Shown here in pieces: positions 23,163 to 46,357 of a stretch of 64,000 bases of DNA. The notes beneath the pieces are model-generated. The model did no database searches, was not told the DNA's origin, and was given only the letters and a program-made list of their open reading frames with translations. Each line of letters begins with the position of its first letter. Within the stretch, counting starts at the first letter, position 1. Origin of the DNA: Gossypium raimondii (lineage: Eukaryota; Streptophyta; Magnoliopsida; Malvales; Malvaceae); NCBI RefSeq assembly GCF_025698545.1, contig NC_068571.1:52113733-52177732 (forward strand). Reading direction: 5' to 3'. A program made the translations under genes and the position numbers.

Positions 23163-23552
23163 TCAGCTTCGCTTAACAGGGTCAAAGTTAGAGACACCAA
23201 TGACAGCTCCAATAATGGCGACAAGCACAACACCGCCAGCAGCAATGCTAAGCAAGAAGTTCTTGAGAGAAGGGGTAACCCCATCAGCTGCTTGAGCTAT
23301 TTCAGGGACCATCATTGATGTTGTCATTGCAGCTGCTGTCAACATAGTCACTGCCTTCTCCTTGTTTGAAGAAGAAGAAGAAGAAGAAGCCTTGATTTCA
23401 AGTTTTGTTGCATTGGGTCTTGTAGTTGGGGTGGCAGCCATTGATGAATGCTTGAGTGGAGGTGGGTTGAGGAAAGGGTTGGGGATGGAGACTTTGGTCT
23501 GGGTGGTGGGTGATAGTGGCAGTGCCATTGAAACAGCTGAAGTGGAAGCCAT
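23163..23552 (-). CDS. psbX: Photosystem II reaction centre subunit X, nuclear-encoded precursor
   Basis: Small single-helix subunit of photosystem II near cytochrome b559, in the thylakoid membrane. Intronless, 129 aa. Residues 1 to about 58 are a Ser/Thr/Pro-rich chloroplast transit peptide ([18 protein letters not shown] start). A second targeting segment follows ([20 protein letters not shown]), ending in the lumen-type cleavage motif AQA. The mature protein of about 41 aa begins [19 protein letters not shown], has one membrane helix ([20 protein letters not shown]) and ends in the family signature [11 protein letters not shown]. Length matches plant precursors. A run of nine serines (SSSSSSSSN region) encoded by a GAA-type repeat on the plus strand lies in the transit peptide and is probably length-variable. 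Confidence 0.96.
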
Positions 23553-23644
23553 TGGTGCTGTTTGTGGAACAAAGATGAGGGGGATTTGTTGCAGATGTTG
23601 GGGGTTTTGAGAGATTGGTGAGGAATATTTGAGAGGTGGGAATT

Positions 23645-23710
23645 TGGGTTACGTGGTGGATTTTGAAGTTGGGATTTGGAGGATAAGGCTATCTTATTGG
23701 TCCAATCCTA
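23645..23710 (-). promoter_or_regulatory. Light-type promoter motifs upstream of psbX
   Basis: Within about 160 bases upstream of the psbX start are a CCACGTAA word (minus strand; G-box-like core, 23650-23657), a GATAAG I-box (23682-23687, read on the plus strand) and CCAAT words near 23695-23708. This combination is known from light-regulated photosynthesis genes; function here is inferred. Confidence 0.4.
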
Positions 23711-26870: not shown

Positions 26871-27192
26871 CATATATAAAGGAAGAGAGGAAGAAAATAG
26901 GAGAAATTTCTTATCAACAAAATCCAAACATTTTCACAGCTAATTCTTTTAATTCACTGTCTAATGATTGTACGTTTGTTTTGTCTTCATTCTTTTTTGG
27001 CCAATGAAGATTTAATACAAATACATTTTTTTCTTCACCACTACATAACAACCACGGCTTTTAGATTAACTACCAATTATATTTCGTTTGTATTATACAC
27101 AATTTGCCCATTTGCGCTTCTCTCTTTCTCTCTTATAAACTTCATTGCTTGTGTAAAAATCCTTACTCATCTGTAAAACCCCTTTTTTCAAC

Positions 27193-27735
27193 ATGGGAGA
27201 CTTAAACACTGAAGGCCCTTCTTCTTCTTCTCTTCCCCTTTCTTCAAGGTCTAATTTGCCTATGCTTTACTATGGTCTCGTTGTAGTCGGAACAGCTGCC
27301 GTTGTATTGGCTGTATACAACCTTATCGTCATCCGGTGGTGTACACAGCGCCCTGATTATTCTAGGCAAAGACAAACCCGACTTGCCGAAATGGCTGCTG
27401 GGCGGAGTTACGAGAGCCAGAGTAGGATCATATTGTCGTCGAGCTTCAAGTACAAGAAGGGAAGCATCGACACGGGGTCTGAAGAAGCCGGAGAACATGA
27501 ATGCGCAGTTTGTTTATCGGTTTTCGAAGATGGAGATGAAGTGAGGCAACTTCCAAGGTGCAAGCATTCTTTCCATGCTCCTTGTATAGATATGTGGCTC
27601 TATTCTCATTTCGATTGTCCACTATGCCGTACCTTAGTGGATCCCGAGCCTTCTCTGATTCGTCGGAGACAAACAGAGGAAGCTCCACCGCAGAATCCCA
27701 GAGAAGATATTCTAGGCGTCCCAGATTTAGTTTGA
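27193..27735 (+). CDS. ATL: ATL-family RING-H2 E3 ubiquitin ligase
   Basis: Membrane-anchored ubiquitin ligase of the plant ATL group, often linked to defence and stress responses. Intronless, 180 aa, as is usual for ATLs. Start ATG at 27193 (MGDLNTEGPSSSSLPL). One membrane helix at about residues 24-47 (MLYYGLVVVGTAAVVLAVYN). A basic linker follows. The RING-H2 finger at residues 104-145 has ligands C-x2-C-x15-C-x-H-x2-H-x2-C-x10-C-x2-C (ECAVCL, LPRCKHSFHAPCIDMW, DCPLCR), with the ATL-typical proline before the third cysteine and the Trp downstream of the sixth ligand. The acidic tail ends EDILGVPDLV. The short variable regions do not let me name the Arabidopsis orthologue. Complete. Confidence 0.93.
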   Translation: MGDLNTEGPSSSSLPLSSRSNLPMLYYGLVVVGTAAVVLAVYNLIVIRWCTQRPDYSRQRQTRLAEMAAGRSYESQSRIILSSSFKYKKGSIDTGSEEAGEHECAVCLSVFEDGDEVRQLPRCKHSFHAPCIDMWLYSHFDCPLCRTLVDPEPSLIRRRQTEEAPPQNPREDILGVPDLV

Positions 27736-28579: not shown

Positions 28580-30069
28580 CTACATCCTTCTCAAATTGTC
28601 TAGCCTTGCTTGTAAGTCACTATCTATCCCACCGTCGTCATTCCCGGTTGCTTCTGCCTGTGCAACCTTACCCTTTGCAGCTGGTGCAGAAACAGCAGCT
28701 GATGGTGCATTGACAAGCTGCGAGTTAGATCGAATAAGCAGAGTTAGTATTAGGGCAAGAAATGCGAGCTATTAATGTTATGTACAAGAAATGGTGAAAA
28801 TAGCACCTCTTGATTGATATCGATTCCGATTTCATCGAGAACTTGGCTCACAAGTTCTTCTGTTTCTTCCTCTTCTTCATCACCTTCCAGAGCATCATCA
28901 ATAGCGTCACCCATTACCTCACTAACCATCTCCATCTTCTCGTTCTGCATCTCGAATTCTTGCATAATTTTCTGCAACGACGGCAAGTTCATCTGCCTGT
29001 TCATCCGGCCCATTGCCTTTGTCACGCCTTTCATTGCTTCTCCCATTGCTTGTGTTGATTTCAATGTCTGGAAGTTGTATAGAAAATTAGTCGAGCTGTA
29101 AGGGTTGAGCAGAACATATTTCAAAATTTTCTATAATTGCCCTCTCAAGAGTTGTACTTACCAACTTTCATCTACTTACCACGCACAACAAGAGACCATA
29201 ATTTTTAATGTGAACAATTAACACTTCAAGTAATTGACACAGAGATAAATGTATAGATAAAAAAACATACTTGAATTCGAAGAGATACGCCTTGGAGCTG
29301 TGATTTCAGCTTATAGAACTTTTCAATTTGATGTCGAGTTCGGATAAGGTCTTTCGCCATCACCTTTACAGCTCCCTGAAAAAAGTTTCCATCAATCAGA
29401 ACATTTTGAGGTTGTAGGCTACATAGGCGTAAAGCTGATTCATGTTTTGCAAAGATCATGTATAATAGGTTCTAAAAGTAAACCTAGCTCCCGAATACGA
29501 GAGAGGACAGTACAATCTTGAAGCCGAATGAGAAAATAAATGACCACATCAACCCACTAATGTAAAACAAAATAGACATACACACAATCAAGCAGCCAAA
29601 GTGAAAAAAAAAATCAAAGAATGCAAACTCTTGACACATATACTCGATGCATTTTGTTTACAGATCGGGAAGAAGAACATGGGACATCAACTTTTCATAC
29701 AAATTGTAAAATGATCTGATAAAACATGCCGTAATACATAAGACAGTCATCTAGTGCAGAAATACATCAGATTTACACAAAATCAATGAAAAAGCAAGCT
29801 CGCATATGCCAAAAAGCAGAAATTTCTTTTCCCATGATTGCCTTAAAAGAAATTTGTCGAGCAGATAAGCACTTGACTCCAATACATGCTACTTCTAAGA
29901 CGAATATAATAAGACATGCATCATAAAAAAGTCAGCAAAAATGAAAAAAAGGAAAAATATTGATGTAGGAAAAAAATAATTTACCATCTGCCCTTGCTTT
30001 GCAGTTTTCTTTATCTCTGCAATCAGTTTCTTCTCTTGGTTCTGAAGACCTTGCCTCTCCCTCTCTATC

Positions 30070-30101
<32 letters not shown>

Positions 30102-32003
30102 CTCCCGCAGAAGCTCTGAAACCAAAAAAAAACATCAATATTTTCAGATATTACACAAACTCTCAATACGAAATCAATGACATCATTTTATATACACCGT
30201 CCAAATTCACAGCCTAACTACCTCCAAAACCCGGAAACAACAGGAACCATCAACACCATTTAACCCACACCATAAAATGCGTGACTTACCGATTCTTTTC
30301 GTTTGCATCTTTCATGAAAAAACAACATGGATTCAAACATTTCCCATTCAATAATTTGTAAAAGCCTATTGAAATTTGAAACAAATATGAACAAACAACC
30401 ACACAAGTGATCAATCTCATTATCTAAAAACGAATAAACAAATAGCATAGAAAAATTGCATTTCTTATCATAATTCACAAACATTTCTAAAATTAATATA
30501 TGTTTAGCATTCCGTATCAAAATTCTGAATTATAATAATAATAAAAAAAGTCAATTTCCACAAATCATCGCCAGAAAAATACACTCAACTGCTACTTTAA
30601 TCATTAATATCATCCAATTACTAAGACCCTTATCTGGGATCGCTTCAATAATTTGAAACTAATATGAACAAACAACCATTTAACCATTCAATAATTTGCA
30701 ATACACCATAAAAATGCATGACCCGCCCATTTTTTCAGCTTGCATCTTTCACAAAATTCAAGAATTCATAAAACCCTATCAAAATCTGAAACAAATATGA
30801 ACAAACAACCATGCAAACAATCGATCTTATAATCTAAAACTAAACCAAATAAAAACAAATAGCAACCCTCCCCCAACAAAAAAAATGCATTTATTACCAT
30901 AATTCAGAAACATTTCTAAAACAAACACAAACTTTGTCATTCCACATCAAAATTCTGAATTACAGCAAAAAGCAATCAATTGATTCCCACATATAAACTC
31001 CACCTGCTATTTTGATCAGGTATATTATCCAATTACTAAAATCCTTATCTGGGATAACTCCACAAAATCCAAACCGCAACTACCAAAGCGAAAATCATAG
31101 ACCCTTTTTTCGACATTAATGAAAATCCGAAACTAATATGAAACAAACAACCATTCAATAATTTGCAATACACCATAAAATGCATGACCCACCTATTCTT
31201 TCAGCTTGCATATTTCATAAAATTCAATAAATTGTAAACCCTATTGAAAATCGAAACAGATAAGAACAAACGAACAAACACAAATTTTAGCATTCCACAT
31301 CAAATTTATGAATTACAACAAAAAGCAATCAATTGATTTCCACAAATAAATTCCACCTGCTATTTTGATCACGTATATTATCCAATTACTAAAATCCTTA
31401 TCTGGGATCAATTCACAAAATCCAAACCGCAACAACCGAACCGAAAATCATAGACATGAATGAAAATTCGAAACTAATACAAAACAAACAATCATTTAAC
31501 CATTCAATAATTTGTAATACACCAAAAAAACGCATGACCCACCTATTCTTTTCAGCTAGCATCATTCATAAAATTCAATAATTTGTAAAACCCTATCGAA
31601 ATACGAAACAAATATGAACGAGCAATCATGCAAACGACCGATCTTATAATCCAAAACTAAACCAAATAAAAAAACAAATAGCACCCAAACCATAATTCAC
31701 ATCATTCCTGAAATGAACACAATTTACCATTCCACATCAAAACTCTGAATTATAACAAAAAGCGGTCAATCGATTTCCACGAATATACGCAATCTGCTAT
31801 TTTTTATCACGTATATCATCCAATTACTAAAATCTTTTTTTTTCTGAGATCAATTTAAAAACCCAAAAACGAAACGATCAAACCCAAAATCGCAAAACCT
31901 TTTTCGAAATTAATAAATAATTTAATAATTTAATCCCAAAAAAAACGAAAAAAGAAAACCAGGTACCTGCGGGAGTTTTTCTCTTCCCAAAGAGGAAACT
32001 CAT
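28580..32003 (-). CDS. VPS2.1: Vacuolar protein sorting 2 homolog 1 (CHMP2/VPS2.1), ESCRT-III subunit
   Basis: ESCRT-III core subunit acting with VPS24 on endosomes to form intraluminal vesicles of multivesicular bodies; recycled by SKD1/VPS4. Five exons on the minus strand: 32003-31967, 30115-29985, 29375-29271, 29067-28807 and 28717-28580. Phases agree; 672 nt, 223 aa. The product begins MSFLFGKRKTPAELLRENKR, with the basic first helix typical of ESCRT-III, continues GAVKVMAKDLIRTRHQIEKF and TQAMGEAMKGVTKAMGRMNR, then the acidic region DDALEGDEEEEETEELV. It ends in the MIT-interacting motif DSDLQARLDNLRRM. It aligns almost end to end with my memory of Arabidopsis VPS2.1 (225 aa). The first intron is long (31966-30116) and carries tandem repeats. 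Complete. Confidence 0.96.
30255..31850. repeat. Four diverged tandem units in VPS2.1 intron 1
   Basis: The anchor ACACCATAAAATGCATGACC (or a close variant) followed by a TCAGCTTGCATCTTTCAT-type segment occurs near 30266, 30703, 31170 and 31519. Each is preceded by AACAAACAACCATT/TTCAATAATTTGCAAT and followed by AACCCTATCAAAATCTGAAA, then TTCCACATCAAAATTCTGAA and TCCAATTACTAAAATCCTTA. Unit spacing is about 437, 467 and 349 bases. The intron thus grew by tandem duplication of itself. Confidence 0.85.
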
Positions 32004-32378
32004 GTTTGATCGATACTACGAAAACCGTACCAAAAATGAATCGATGGAGGCTTCAAGGATCCGATCTGATGTTTAAGAAACGAGGGTTTTTAATGGTTGG
32101 ATTTAAGGAAGAGATTGCTTAATACAGGTGATTTTATGGCTCTGCTTCGAAGCCAATACCGACTTTTATTTTAGTTTTTTCTTTTGCTTTTAGTCTTTTA
32201 CGCGGTATCGTTATAGTGGCTAGGGAATGGGAATTTATAATTATTAAATTTTTATTTAAATTCAAACGTGGCTTTATATGAATTAGGTGGTCAACAACTC
32301 AAGGATGAAATTAGAATTTTTTTAAGGTAAGTAATTAAATTATAAATTTTTTAGATATTAAAATATAATTTTATTATA
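32004..32378. other. VPS2.1 5'UTR/promoter region
   Basis: Less AT-rich up to about 32230, consistent with a leader and proximal promoter on the minus strand, then AT-rich. No further gene. Confidence 0.45.
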
Positions 32379-33430
32379 ATGTTCGAGTTTTTTTTGGAAG
32401 TTATTTCAATGTCATAGTGTCACGGGCCGCAGTTCAAAGCCCGTGACCATGGCACAAGATGCGCCCCATGGAGGTCTATCGATAAAATGGGGAACATTTA
32501 GCCCACGAGAGCTGGCCCGATTCAGAGAAATATTGGAGAAGCCTATCAGATTGAAGCCTAGTTGGCCCAATGATGAAGATATGGCAACTTAGGCTAATAT
32601 GGTAACTAATCTTAGAAGATAGAGGGAATCATATCTTGTAAAGATTAGATTAGATTTGATATGTCATATCTTGTAAATCCCTAAAATTAAGGGATATGGT
32701 TAATCTCGTCCGTCGATGTAAATATATCTTGACCGTCGGTTTTGGGGGAGCTCAACTATAAATAGAGAGCCTCCCCTCATTTGTACTCATTCCATTGTAT
32801 TCTGAATTCTTAAGAGTAATAGAGTTCTGAGAGCATTTACTCAAACACCTTGTGTGCATTCTTTTCTGCGGCTTTCTGTTGTTCTTTGGCTTAGCTTCTT
32901 TTGGCATAAATCGCTTCCGCTCTTCAATTGGTGCCTTGGAGGAGTTCTTAAGGAATCCTCATTTGAGTTAAGGCTGACTTAGGCGAGTTTGGAGCAAACG
33001 GATCGCCTAAGGCCGCACGGTTTGCGAGACGAAAGGTCTAGCCCCGTGACAATAGTATCTGATACACGAGTATTGGCTCGGGGCTTCTTTTCTACATCTT
33101 TTTACCTTGAAAAAGTAGGGGCATCTTATTTCCTTGAATTTCATTATCTTTCGGCTAACCTAGCCTACTCTCTCCCTGAAGACCAATAAGGGTAGTACAA
33201 GAATATTCACTTGTTGCCCATTGACTATGCAATTCGATCTGATATTAGACTTTAACTCACCCTTCGTGGATGAACCTTGCAGAGAAACATTAGGTTTTCG
33301 AGGAATTAAATTTTCATCAATGTTTGCATTACTCAAGTTGACATTCTCACTTTCGCTTTGTCTACTCCCGCTCACACGTGTGCTTCCTCCTAAGGCGGAA
33401 CGTTCCCCATCATTTTTAAAAGGGACTAAA
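32379..33430 (-). other. Organelle-derived 23S rRNA gene fragment in nuclear DNA (probable NUPT)
   Basis: On the minus strand, 33425-33052 and then 32417-32379 read as a continuous but decayed piece of bacterial-type large-subunit rRNA. Recognisable words are GGGGAACGTTCCGCCTTAGG, GGAAGCACACGTGTGAGCG, AAAGCGAAAGTGAGAATGTC, TCTCTGCAAGGTTCATCCAC, CAACAAGTGAATATTCTTGT, GGCTAGGTTAGCCGAAAGAT and GCCCCGAGCCAATACTCG. After the LTR interruption it continues GAAATAAC and AAACTCGAAC. Nearly all differences from the chloroplast 23S that I remember are C-to-T or G-to-A, the expected decay of methylated nuclear insertions. About 410 bp of rRNA remain. Chloroplast origin fits better than mitochondrial, but that choice rests on memory. 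Not a functional rRNA gene. Confidence 0.85.
32418..33051 (+). mobile_element. Solo LTR, 634 bp, inserted in the 23S fragment
   Basis: Starts TGTCACGGG and ends CCCGTGACA, so it has TG...CA ends inside a 9-bp inverted repeat. A TATA box (CTATAAATAGAG) lies near 32756-32767, as expected for an LTR promoter on the plus strand. ATAG flanks both sides (32414-32417 and 33052-33055), giving a 4-bp visible target duplication. The interrupted rRNA sequence resumes exactly across it. There is no internal coding region, so this is a solo LTR left by recombination; probably a gypsy-type element. Fossil only. Confidence 0.85.
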
Positions 33431-34494
33431 TAAGTTTTTTAAGGTGCTAAAGTGAAATTTTATCATATATAAATTTACAATTTAATAATTGATAAGGCAA
33501 CAGAATTGTGATTGTTCATTTTTTAGAGGGGCAGGCAACCCCTAATGGTCAGATTTTGTTTATACGATGTTCGATAATCACATTGAATAATAACTATATT
33601 CAAAGTTAAGAATGTTAAACTCTTAAATAAGATAATAAAAACAACGGTGGGTCAAATATATTCAATTTTTGTAAAATTTAAATTTATAAATCTATAAATC
33701 TATTTTAAAAATTATTTAAACCCTAATCTAAATTAATTAATTTTTCTTCGAATATCCAAATTCGTTAAATATGATAATATTTTTTCACAATATTTTCTAA
33801 AATAAAATTTTTAGTGCTTGATTATAACAACCAACAGAATGGGGAATATTTCCCCCTAAGCATTTCGATGTTGTAAAATTGTTGGAAAGCGAGTGAAGGA
33901 GTTCTTCATCTGCACCAATGCCTGTAGGATTGAGATGCTATCTTAGTAATTCAAATTCAAGATTTATCGATAAAGAAAACCCAGAACCACAGACAACCAA
34001 AGAGAAAATTAAGGAAAACCCAATTAAGAATTAAACTGAAAAAGCCAATTCATGGATTAAAATCCAGATTTTTTTTTTTCTAAATTTTCAACAACAGAAC
34101 AATACCCTTCAAAAAGGGTACACAAAAGAACCAAAGATTAACTCAAAGGAAATATAGAAAAAATGGTTGTTTAAAAGGAGGCTTCAAGTTCTTTAGCAAA
34201 GAGCTTTACTTGTTGTTCTATTAAGCTTAAAACACCATATTTTTTAAACAAGAAAACCAAAGATGAAACTTACACAAGGAAAGAACAAGGATTTCAGGGA
34301 GGTAGAAGGCAAAGAGAGAAGGAGCAACCGCCGGTAGCTGAAAAAGGTGGCGGCTTCAACATGGGTTTGAGATGGCCCTCAACAGGGAGTGGCAAGATGG
34401 CTGACATGCTGTTCGGGTTTCTCGTTTTTGGATTAATTATAGAAAGGTAACTAGCTTTACTAAAAAATAATATAAAATGCTTGGTGTCCATTAT
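33431..34494. other. Unassigned region, partly gene-like on the minus strand
   Basis: 33480-33830 is AT-rich. From about 34490 down to 33850 the minus strand is less AT-rich. It has a leader-like CT-rich stretch (34390-34260), a possible intron, and a short frame after an acceptor-like TCCTACAG (about 33927) that reads GIGADEELLHSLSNNFTTSK. I do not recognise the protein. It could be a displaced 5' gene fragment or part of a transposon. No complete gene can be built. Confidence 0.3.
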
Positions 34495-44315: not shown

Positions 44316-46357
44316 ATGGCTAGTCGGGTTCGAATCTTGCCGAAGGAAAATTTACTTATTAGTTGCCCACCGTGGTGGAATTCAAACGAACAGCAATTTG
44401 TTGAGATTGTACCACAGAATGTGAGCTTGAAGAAAGCAGAAAATCACTCTCAACTATATCATAATGCAAAGCGTTTCGATCTTCAACTACTAGACCACGA
44501 ACCAACATTAGCTGAAGCAGGTGTCACGGGAGTGAATAATTCGCAATGCAATTCATCGGAATCTGGTATTTGATGCTTCTGAAACTGCTATTTATCGGAA
44601 ATTTTTGGTTTGGCATTGTTTGCTTTCTCATTTTCACCAACGTTGTTACTGAGTAGGTATATTCAATGGCTAACGTTTTCACCAATCGTTTGCCTACCAT
44701 CACAGATGAAAGAAAAAACCCACTATAAACTTAGAAATTAACCTAGTTCTTATGCTTCCTAGGGTTTAAATACAGGAAGTACCCGATGTTTTACCGATCT
44801 CTTTCTCACATTCATACAAAAAACCCGTCTCTGGTACAAAGATCTCATAGGAATACATCTCTTGTAATTTTAAAAGTTTAAGTTCTACCGTATATTTATA
44901 AAATCTAGTACTTGACCATCAAGAAATCCTAAACTTAAGCACCAAGTAATCTTCAATCGATAGAATTATACCAGAATCCAACCTGGTACTTTGCTTTAGT
45001 TCTCGAACAAGCTGGAAAGGTGTCGTAATTGTTTTCTTTTGCATCAGGTCAGGTTGAAAGTTGCAGGAAAGACATCGAAGGTCAAACGAAGCCGGTTTAC
45101 CTGCTTAACAATCCAAACACATTGTTAAGCCCTTCTCACCCAAACTATAACCGTTCAATGGTATGTTTGGTAGTCTTTATTAACTTCATTTTAATTGGTT
45201 TTGTGTTAAATTTAGTATTTTCTTGATCCCATTTCAGGCTTGTGCTCAATATCCTTATACTGATGCTTACTTTACCGGGCTATTTACTCCGTACGGGCAA
45301 CAGACTATTGTAAGATCTCTCGATCCGTGAATTATCATAGCTCGGAATTGTTATGCAAATATAATCTACCTTGTGACTGTTTTTCTTATGTTTCGAACCC
45401 GTGATTTAAACTTTGATCATATTCTGGCCCAGATGACCGGAACTGCACCGACTCGAATTCCGTTGCCTCTTGATCTTGCAGAAGATGAGCCCATTTACGT
45501 CAATCCAAAACAATATCATGGGATTCTCAGGAGGAGGCGACATCGTGCAAAGCTCGAGACGCGAAACAAGCTCGTTAAATCTCGAAAGGTATACGGATTT
45601 CATATTTGCTTTTTTATGATCTCCCATTGCAATGGTTGTAACCTAAGGCTGTTAGATATTAATCTAAATTCTATTTGGTAAGACATTTAGTATGTTTTTT
45701 TTTTTAAATGATTCTATTAGTTGGAGGTTACTTGACAAGGGGTAGATCAACAGGGGCCAGACAAGTGGTCAAATTGCAATTTTAGTCCTTGAGAAATTTA
45801 TAAGGAATGTTTGTAGTATAATCGATGCAAAAGTTACAAGTTGTCATGTTTTCGGGTTGTGTTTTTTTCATATTAATACTGCGTGTATAAATCATAGTTA
45901 AAATATGCCATAGGTCTCTATACTCTTCTTAAATTTAAAATTTAGTCCATGTACTTTTATTTTTAGGACTTTAGTCTCTCAATTTTTCTGATTTCAAAAT
46001 TTAGGTCCAACTCTTAACATCGTTAAGATTATTTTGTTAATGCAGCCATACCTTCACGAATCTCGCCATCTTCATGCAATGAATCGAATTCGGGGATCCG
46101 GCGGACGTTTTCTTAGCAAAAAGAAACCCCAACGGTCCGATCCAACCTCCATTTACATCTCGGATATCGGTTGCTTAGACCAAAAGGATAATAATAGATC
46201 GGAACTTGAGAGCCGTTGCTCGCATACGGCAGAATACGGTGGTTCATGTACGAGCTGCTCTCACATTTCAAGTATCACCAACAATGGTGGTGACATATCT
46301 CGCCGTGCGGTCAGTTCGTGCAATGGAATACAAAACTGTGCTTCGCTTGTCCGGTGA
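44316..46357 (+). CDS. NF-YA: Nuclear transcription factor Y subunit A (CCAAT-binding, HAP2 type)
   Basis: DNA-sequence-reading subunit of the NF-Y trimer, which binds CCAAT boxes with NF-YB and NF-YC in the nucleus. Five coding exons: 44316-44565, 45048-45160, 45238-45309, 45433-45588 and 46046-46357, with consistent phases; 903 nt, 300 aa. The start at 44316 is the first ATG after the leader acceptor. N-terminal marker [12 protein letters not shown] is typical of plant NF-YA proteins, as is [18 protein letters not shown]. The conserved core spans about residues 164-222: the A1 helix binding NF-YB/YC ([20 protein letters not shown]), the linker, and A2 ([20 protein letters not shown], then RFLSKKK) contacting CCAAT. 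MNRIRG replaces the more usual RRPRG, a mild variation. The C-terminus is Ser/Cys-rich. The 3'UTR has a miR169 site. Confidence 0.95.

What the first reader, a model, noticed from the sequence alone, without database searches (positions are those of the whole stretch)
32379..33430. Nuclear organelle-type 23S rRNA fragment interrupted by a solo LTR, readable base by base
The rRNA reads on the minus strand from 33425 to 33052, is broken by a 634-bp LTR, and resumes at 32417. CTAT (minus strand) is duplicated at the break. Differences from chloroplast 23S are almost all C-to-T or G-to-A, suggesting long methylation-driven decay. The order of events is clear: organelle DNA transfer, LTR element insertion, then recombination to a solo LTR.
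Basis: partly seen in the sequence, partly recalled or inferred. Interest (0 to 1): 0.7.

Follow-up and report, generated by a model that had tools for sequence, protein, structure and literature searches.

The report
Decayed plastid rRNA split by LTR
A scrap of chloroplast-type ribosomal RNA gene that moved into a plant chromosome long ago, decayed, and was later split by a jumping element that left one end behind: an ordinary genome fossil, though the jumping element's family shows a strong taste for CTAG sites.

Summary
Confirmed, and ordinary. The minus strand at 33418-33052 plus 32417-32381 is a piece of bacterial/plastid-type 23S rRNA (Rfam E 2.5e-8, below the curated cut-off; 27 further places in the same genome, best E 3.6e-77). 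A 634-bp LTR (32418-33051) with a perfect 4-bp target-site duplication cuts it. Sister copies align across the joined empty site. Of 75 substitutions over 400 positions from the sister-copy consensus, 58 are C>T/G>A, 3 the reverse, 14 transversions; losses are higher at CpG/CHG (32/88) than CHH (26/131; P 0.008). Both TSD copies carry a decayed base, so some decay preceded the insertion. The LTR is younger (6 private changes in 634 against 29 others). It is the least conserved of the 28 copies compared. Solo LTRs are routine in this family: 11 of 30 fetched loci. Beyond routine: the family's 4-bp TSD is CTAG in 13 of 22 insertions and CTAG follows 183 of 516 non-PBS 3' ends genome-wide, against 0.17% of positions in the window. 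No plastid genome and no relative's genome was available, so direct plastid alignment, dates and orthology remain untested.

The parts
33052..33418 (-). 5' part of a nuclear plastid-type 23S rRNA fragment (NUPT)
   Evidence: Rfam RF02541 E 2.5e-8; 27 further places in own genome; alignment
32381..32417 (-). 3' part of the same 23S fragment, resuming after the LTR (11-base gap inside)
   Evidence: alignment of the joined empty site to sister copies
32418..33051 (+). solo LTR, 634 bp, TG...CA ends; orientation from sister elements with PBS after the 5' LTR
   Evidence: no second LTR and no internal-region match in the window
32414..32417 (.). target-site duplication, left copy (ATAG; CTAT on minus)
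33052..33055 (.). target-site duplication, right copy (ATAG; CTAT on minus)

Best explanation
A nuclear plastid DNA insertion (NUPT) carrying part of the 23S rRNA gene landed in this chromosome, lost its function at once, and decayed mainly by C>T/G>A change as expected of methylated cytosines. After part of that decay a short, non-autonomous, gag-protease LTR retrotransposon inserted into it, duplicating 4 bp (ATAG), and recombination between its two LTRs left a solo LTR. Shown: rRNA homology, continuity across the LTR, TSD, LTR boundaries, substitution bias and its context. Inferred: plastid rather than mitochondrial carrier, methylation as the cause, LTR-LTR recombination. No function is proposed; it is a neutral fossil.
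For: Rfam RF02541 E 2.5e-8; 28 further matches in own genome, of which L002 scores 678.5 bits to RF02541. In the pairwise comparison of L001-L008 the copies end at different places, as independent insertions would. The majority consensus of sister copies is 72-73% identical to cyanobacterial 23S over its full length and about 66% to enterobacterial ones among the 25 of 492 records listed. 58 C>T/G>A against 3 reverse and 14 transversions; CpG+CHG 32/88 against CHH 26/131, Fisher P 0.008. Sister copies show the same bias: CpG 256/1292, CHG 139/791, CHH 202/3181. TSD perfect; target base C in 12 of 15 sister copies with a letter there, T in both window TSD copies. LTR has 6 private changes in 634 against 29 others. 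10 further solo LTRs of the family among 30 fetched loci.
Against: No plastid genome was found in the collections searched, so the ancestor is a consensus of decayed copies. The best full-length match of that consensus is a 2.9-kb record labelled E. coli plasmid (74.5%), and 10 of 492 records fall in an 80-90% identity band without being among the best-covered rows. The context pattern of this copy is less CpG-weighted than in the others (log odds CpG:CHH 0.57 against 1.29, z -1.93). 3 of 15 sister copies carry T at the target base, so a T could have been present for another reason.
Confidence: 0.93

Rival explanations
1. The plastid 23S piece came by way of the mitochondrial genome (plastid DNA in mtDNA, then to the nucleus) or by copying of an older nuclear NUPT, rather than straight from the plastid.
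For: Cannot be told apart from the sequence here; the window copy is the least conserved of 28, as an earlier-decayed template would also give.
Against: L002-L008 end at different places and no flank outside the rRNA was seen to be shared with the window copy (L001 matches there beyond the rRNA are short and lie elsewhere).
Confidence: 0.15
2. The rRNA is mitochondrial 26S (NUMT).
For: Both are bacterial-type large-subunit rRNAs.
Against: Consensus closest to cyanobacteria among identified full-length rows; the window fragment itself hits two Leptolyngbya, one Scytonema and one record labelled E. coli, and nothing else, in the plasmid collection.
Confidence: 0.03
3. The solo LTR is an assembly collapse of a full-length element.
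For: The family is repetitive (2281 first-look candidates), and repeats can collapse.
Against: Solo LTRs with matching TSDs are frequent in the same assembly, beside full-length copies that are resolved.
Confidence: 0.04

Closest known systems
NUPTs (nuclear plastid DNA insertions) of Gossypium and other plants
   Same: Decayed plastid-type DNA in a nuclear chromosome, strong C/G to T/A transition bias. PMC6376042 (passages seen) reports that bias in 17 plants; PMC6852956 (passages seen) reports 2072 kb of NUPTs in G. raimondii and their general decay there.
   Different: Nothing in kind; this copy is the least conserved of the 28 copies compared and has been split by an LTR.
Solo LTRs of plant LTR retrotransposons
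   Same: TG...CA ends, TSD, no internal region.
   Different: 4-bp TSD. PMC6911290 (passages seen) gives 5 bp in 87.2% and 4 bp in 11.6% of plant insertions.
TR-GAG-type non-autonomous LTR elements (name recalled; search listing only)
   Same: Full-length relative L061: 3573 bp, 2305-bp interior, one 676-aa gag ORF, PBS and PPT, no room for a polymerase.
   Different: The ORF also carries an aspartic protease domain; strong CTAG target preference.

Membership tests
NUPT | homology to plastid DNA | tested here: inconclusive
   No plastid record found; sister-copy consensus 72-73% to cyanobacterial 23S over its full length; near-identity to land-plant plastid 23S is recalled only.
NUPT | lies in a nuclear chromosome | tested here: met
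   Window is G000:C7:52113733-52177732 of a 53.5-Mb contig, beside intron-bearing protein genes.
NUPT | C>T/G>A biased decay | tested here: met
   58 of 75 substitutions, 3 reverse transitions.
Solo LTR | LTR ends and TSD, no second LTR or interior | tested here: met
TR-GAG-type element | LTRs, PBS, PPT, gag, no polymerase | tested here: met
   Tested on full-length relative L061, not on the solo LTR itself; of 7 ORFs listed only the 676-aa one was searched against Pfam.
Orthologous NUPT shared with other cottons | same insertion at the orthologous site | not testable with these tools
   The genome has no relatives here.

The most novel reading that the evidence does not exclude
The LTR family that hit this fragment is moved by an integrase that recognises a short palindrome centred on CTAG (roughly GTN-CTAG-NAC), a far stronger sequence preference than the weak one reported for plant LTR retrotransposons in general; the insertion here used a one-base variant (ATAG) made available by decay of the rRNA sequence.
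Probability: 0.5. Interest if true: 0.4.

Novelty: new member of a known kind. Interest (0 to 1): 0.18.

Why it matters
As a fossil it gives a clean relative order of events and one more case of methylation-type decay of plastid DNA. The CTAG preference of the LTR family, if it holds in a full census, would be a tractable case for how a plant retrotransposon integrase reads sequence.

Tried and rejected
A 38-base plastid 23S pattern, recalled and checked against the copy consensus, found nothing in viral contigs, genome contigs or the own genome, so no plastid reference was obtained and a consensus of nuclear copies was used instead. The idea that the window copy decays with an unusual context (relatively few CpG losses) was tested and not upheld at a convincing level: z -1.93, and two other copies (L006, L040) have similar ratios. 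The idea that L071 or L072 is a full-length autonomous partner of the LTR family was not borne out: their listed ORFs of 120 aa or more look like gag and related pieces (by eye; not searched against Pfam). A phage search with the fragment found nothing. Rfam on five sister loci at once failed inside the tool.

Published reports of a CTAG target preference: one search listed 11 papers holding 'LTR retrotransposon', 'target site duplication' and 'CTAG'; I read the one passage in PMC6913007, which concerns Helitron ends, and saw only the listing of the others. One search (CTAG, TSD, retrotransposon, Gossypium) found 0 papers. So I cannot say it is unreported, only that these searches of this library did not show it.

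Full report
What was checked. The finding claims a nuclear organelle-type 23S rRNA fragment on the minus strand, broken by a 634-bp solo LTR with CTAT duplicated. Rfam with an E-value threshold gives RF02541 (bacterial LSU rRNA) on the minus strand of 32300-33500, 33.9 bits, E 2.5e-8. The score is under the curated cut-off of 50 bits and the gathering scan of the whole window lists nothing, as expected of a short decayed piece.

The same genome. The window lies at G000:C7:52113733-52177732 of a 750.8-Mb assembly of 281 contigs. Matches fall on contigs numbered 1 to 13, which fits a cotton of the G. raimondii kind (my inference; PMC6852956, passages seen, lists 761.57 Mb for that species). The fragment has 28 further matches there (73-83% identity; best E 3.6e-77); two of them are pieces of one place, so 27 places. 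One of them, L002, matches RF02541 with 678.5 bits over the stretch scanned. Among L001-L008 the copies end at different positions, so they are not one amplified repeat unit.

Continuity and edges. Joining the two flanks in a script gave an empty site. In local alignment 7 of the 28 loci extend 14 bases past the junction. The gapped alignment continues over an 11-base gap to CTCGAAC; it spans 33418-33052 and 32417-32381. Beyond these points no rRNA similarity is evident by eye.

Decay. Against a majority consensus of the other copies, 400 aligned positions hold 75 substitutions: 58 C>T/G>A, 3 T>C/A>G, 14 transversions; 21 further consensus positions are gaps. G+C fell from 0.55 to 0.39. C>T/G>A losses are 17/56 at CpG, 15/32 at CHG and 26/131 at CHH; CpG plus CHG against CHH gives P 0.008. 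In the other 27 copies the figures are 256/1292, 139/791 and 202/3181. With each copy scored against a consensus that leaves it out, the window copy is the least conserved of 28 (81.2%; next L052 85.4%). The copies were found through their similarity to the window piece, so they are not a random sample of 23S insertions. PMC6376042 (passages seen) reports the same bias in NUPTs of 17 plants.

Source. No plastid record was found. The sister-copy consensus matches cyanobacterial 23S at 72-73% over its full length and enterobacterial records at about 66% (25 of 492 records listed). The top row is a 2.9-kb record labelled E. coli plasmid at 74.5%, whose true source I did not pursue, and 10 of the 492 records fall in an 80-90% band that the listed rows do not show. 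A plastid origin is therefore well supported but indirect.

The LTR. Its boundaries are 32418-33051. Of 40 scored matches in the genome (2281 first-look candidates), 36 cover all 634 positions. Ten full-length elements were fetched; in L061 the element is 3573 bp with a 2305-bp interior and a 676-aa ORF with gag and aspartic protease domains. LTR pairs differ by K80 0.006-0.049 (10 elements), the window LTR by at least 0.019 from the 20 LTRs of these elements, and it has 6 changes not shared with 29 other LTRs. No second LTR and no interior match lie in the window. Of the 30 loci fetched, 11 including the window are solo LTRs with outer flanks on both sides; 10 of the 11 have an exact 4-bp TSD.

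Order of events. In the sister copies the target reads CTAC followed by G: the last base is C in 12 of 15 copies with a letter there and T in 3. Both TSD copies in the window read CTAT. The simplest reading is that this C>T change happened before the LTR inserted. Together with the much lower divergence of the LTR this gives: transfer, decay, LTR insertion, loss of the interior.

Target preference. Of 22 insertions with both outer flanks, 20 have an exact 4-bp TSD, none a 5-bp one, and 13 are CTAG (counted from its rows; L029 has CTAA/CTAG, L067 none; L072 is a composite stretch with CTTC). The insertions are the nearest relatives of the window LTR, not a random draw. Genome-wide, GCCCCGTGACA occurs 686 times (16 for the pattern read backwards), is followed by CTAG 183 times (0 backwards) and by a PBS-like NNTGGTATC 170 times, so 183 of the remaining 516. 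TGTCACGGGC occurs 926 times (106 backwards) and is preceded by CTAG 208 times (0 backwards). CTAG makes up 107 of 63,997 positions in the window. In 20 sites typed into a script (L067 and L072 left out), +2 is A in 15, +3 is C in 12, -3 is G in 9 and -2 is T in 8, so the palindrome outside CTAG is partial. PMC6911290 (passages seen) describes a weak palindrome preference in plant LTR elements, 4-bp TSDs in 11.6%, and GC-rich centres for them, unlike CTAG; it also cites Tos17 as a case with a palindromic consensus. PMC5738225 (passages seen) found no clear preference for two barley families and cites palindromes in Sireviruses.

Setting. The insert lies upstream of a minus-strand gene with two Snf7-domain exons at 28750-29130 and 29895-30134; a first exon near 32000 is my reading by eye. 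No effect on that gene was tested.

Verdict. The observation and its interpretation hold; in kind it is an ordinary NUPT and an ordinary solo LTR.

Noticed in passing
32418-33051 and relatives L011, L016, L023, L028, L032, L033, L035, L061-L063, L066, L068, L070: The LTR family has 4-bp TSDs that are CTAG in 13 of 22 insertions; CTAG also follows 183 of 516 non-PBS 3' ends in the genome.
   Followed up: partly
28750-30134 (-): Snf7-domain (ESCRT-III-like) gene; the decayed rRNA and solo LTR lie upstream of it.
   Followed up: partly
23163-23648 (-): PsbX-domain ORF (nuclear-encoded photosystem II protein).
   Followed up: no
27157-27735 (+) and 45331-45681 (+): RING-finger ORF and an NF-YA-domain exon.
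   Followed up: no
L044, L005: Two 23S copies show many one-base losses in short runs of the same base, unlike the others; cause not pursued.
   Followed up: no
NZ_AP027616.1 (2911 bases): Record labelled E. coli plasmid that matches 23S rRNA of cyanobacterial kind better than enterobacterial 23S does; possibly mislabelled.
   Followed up: no
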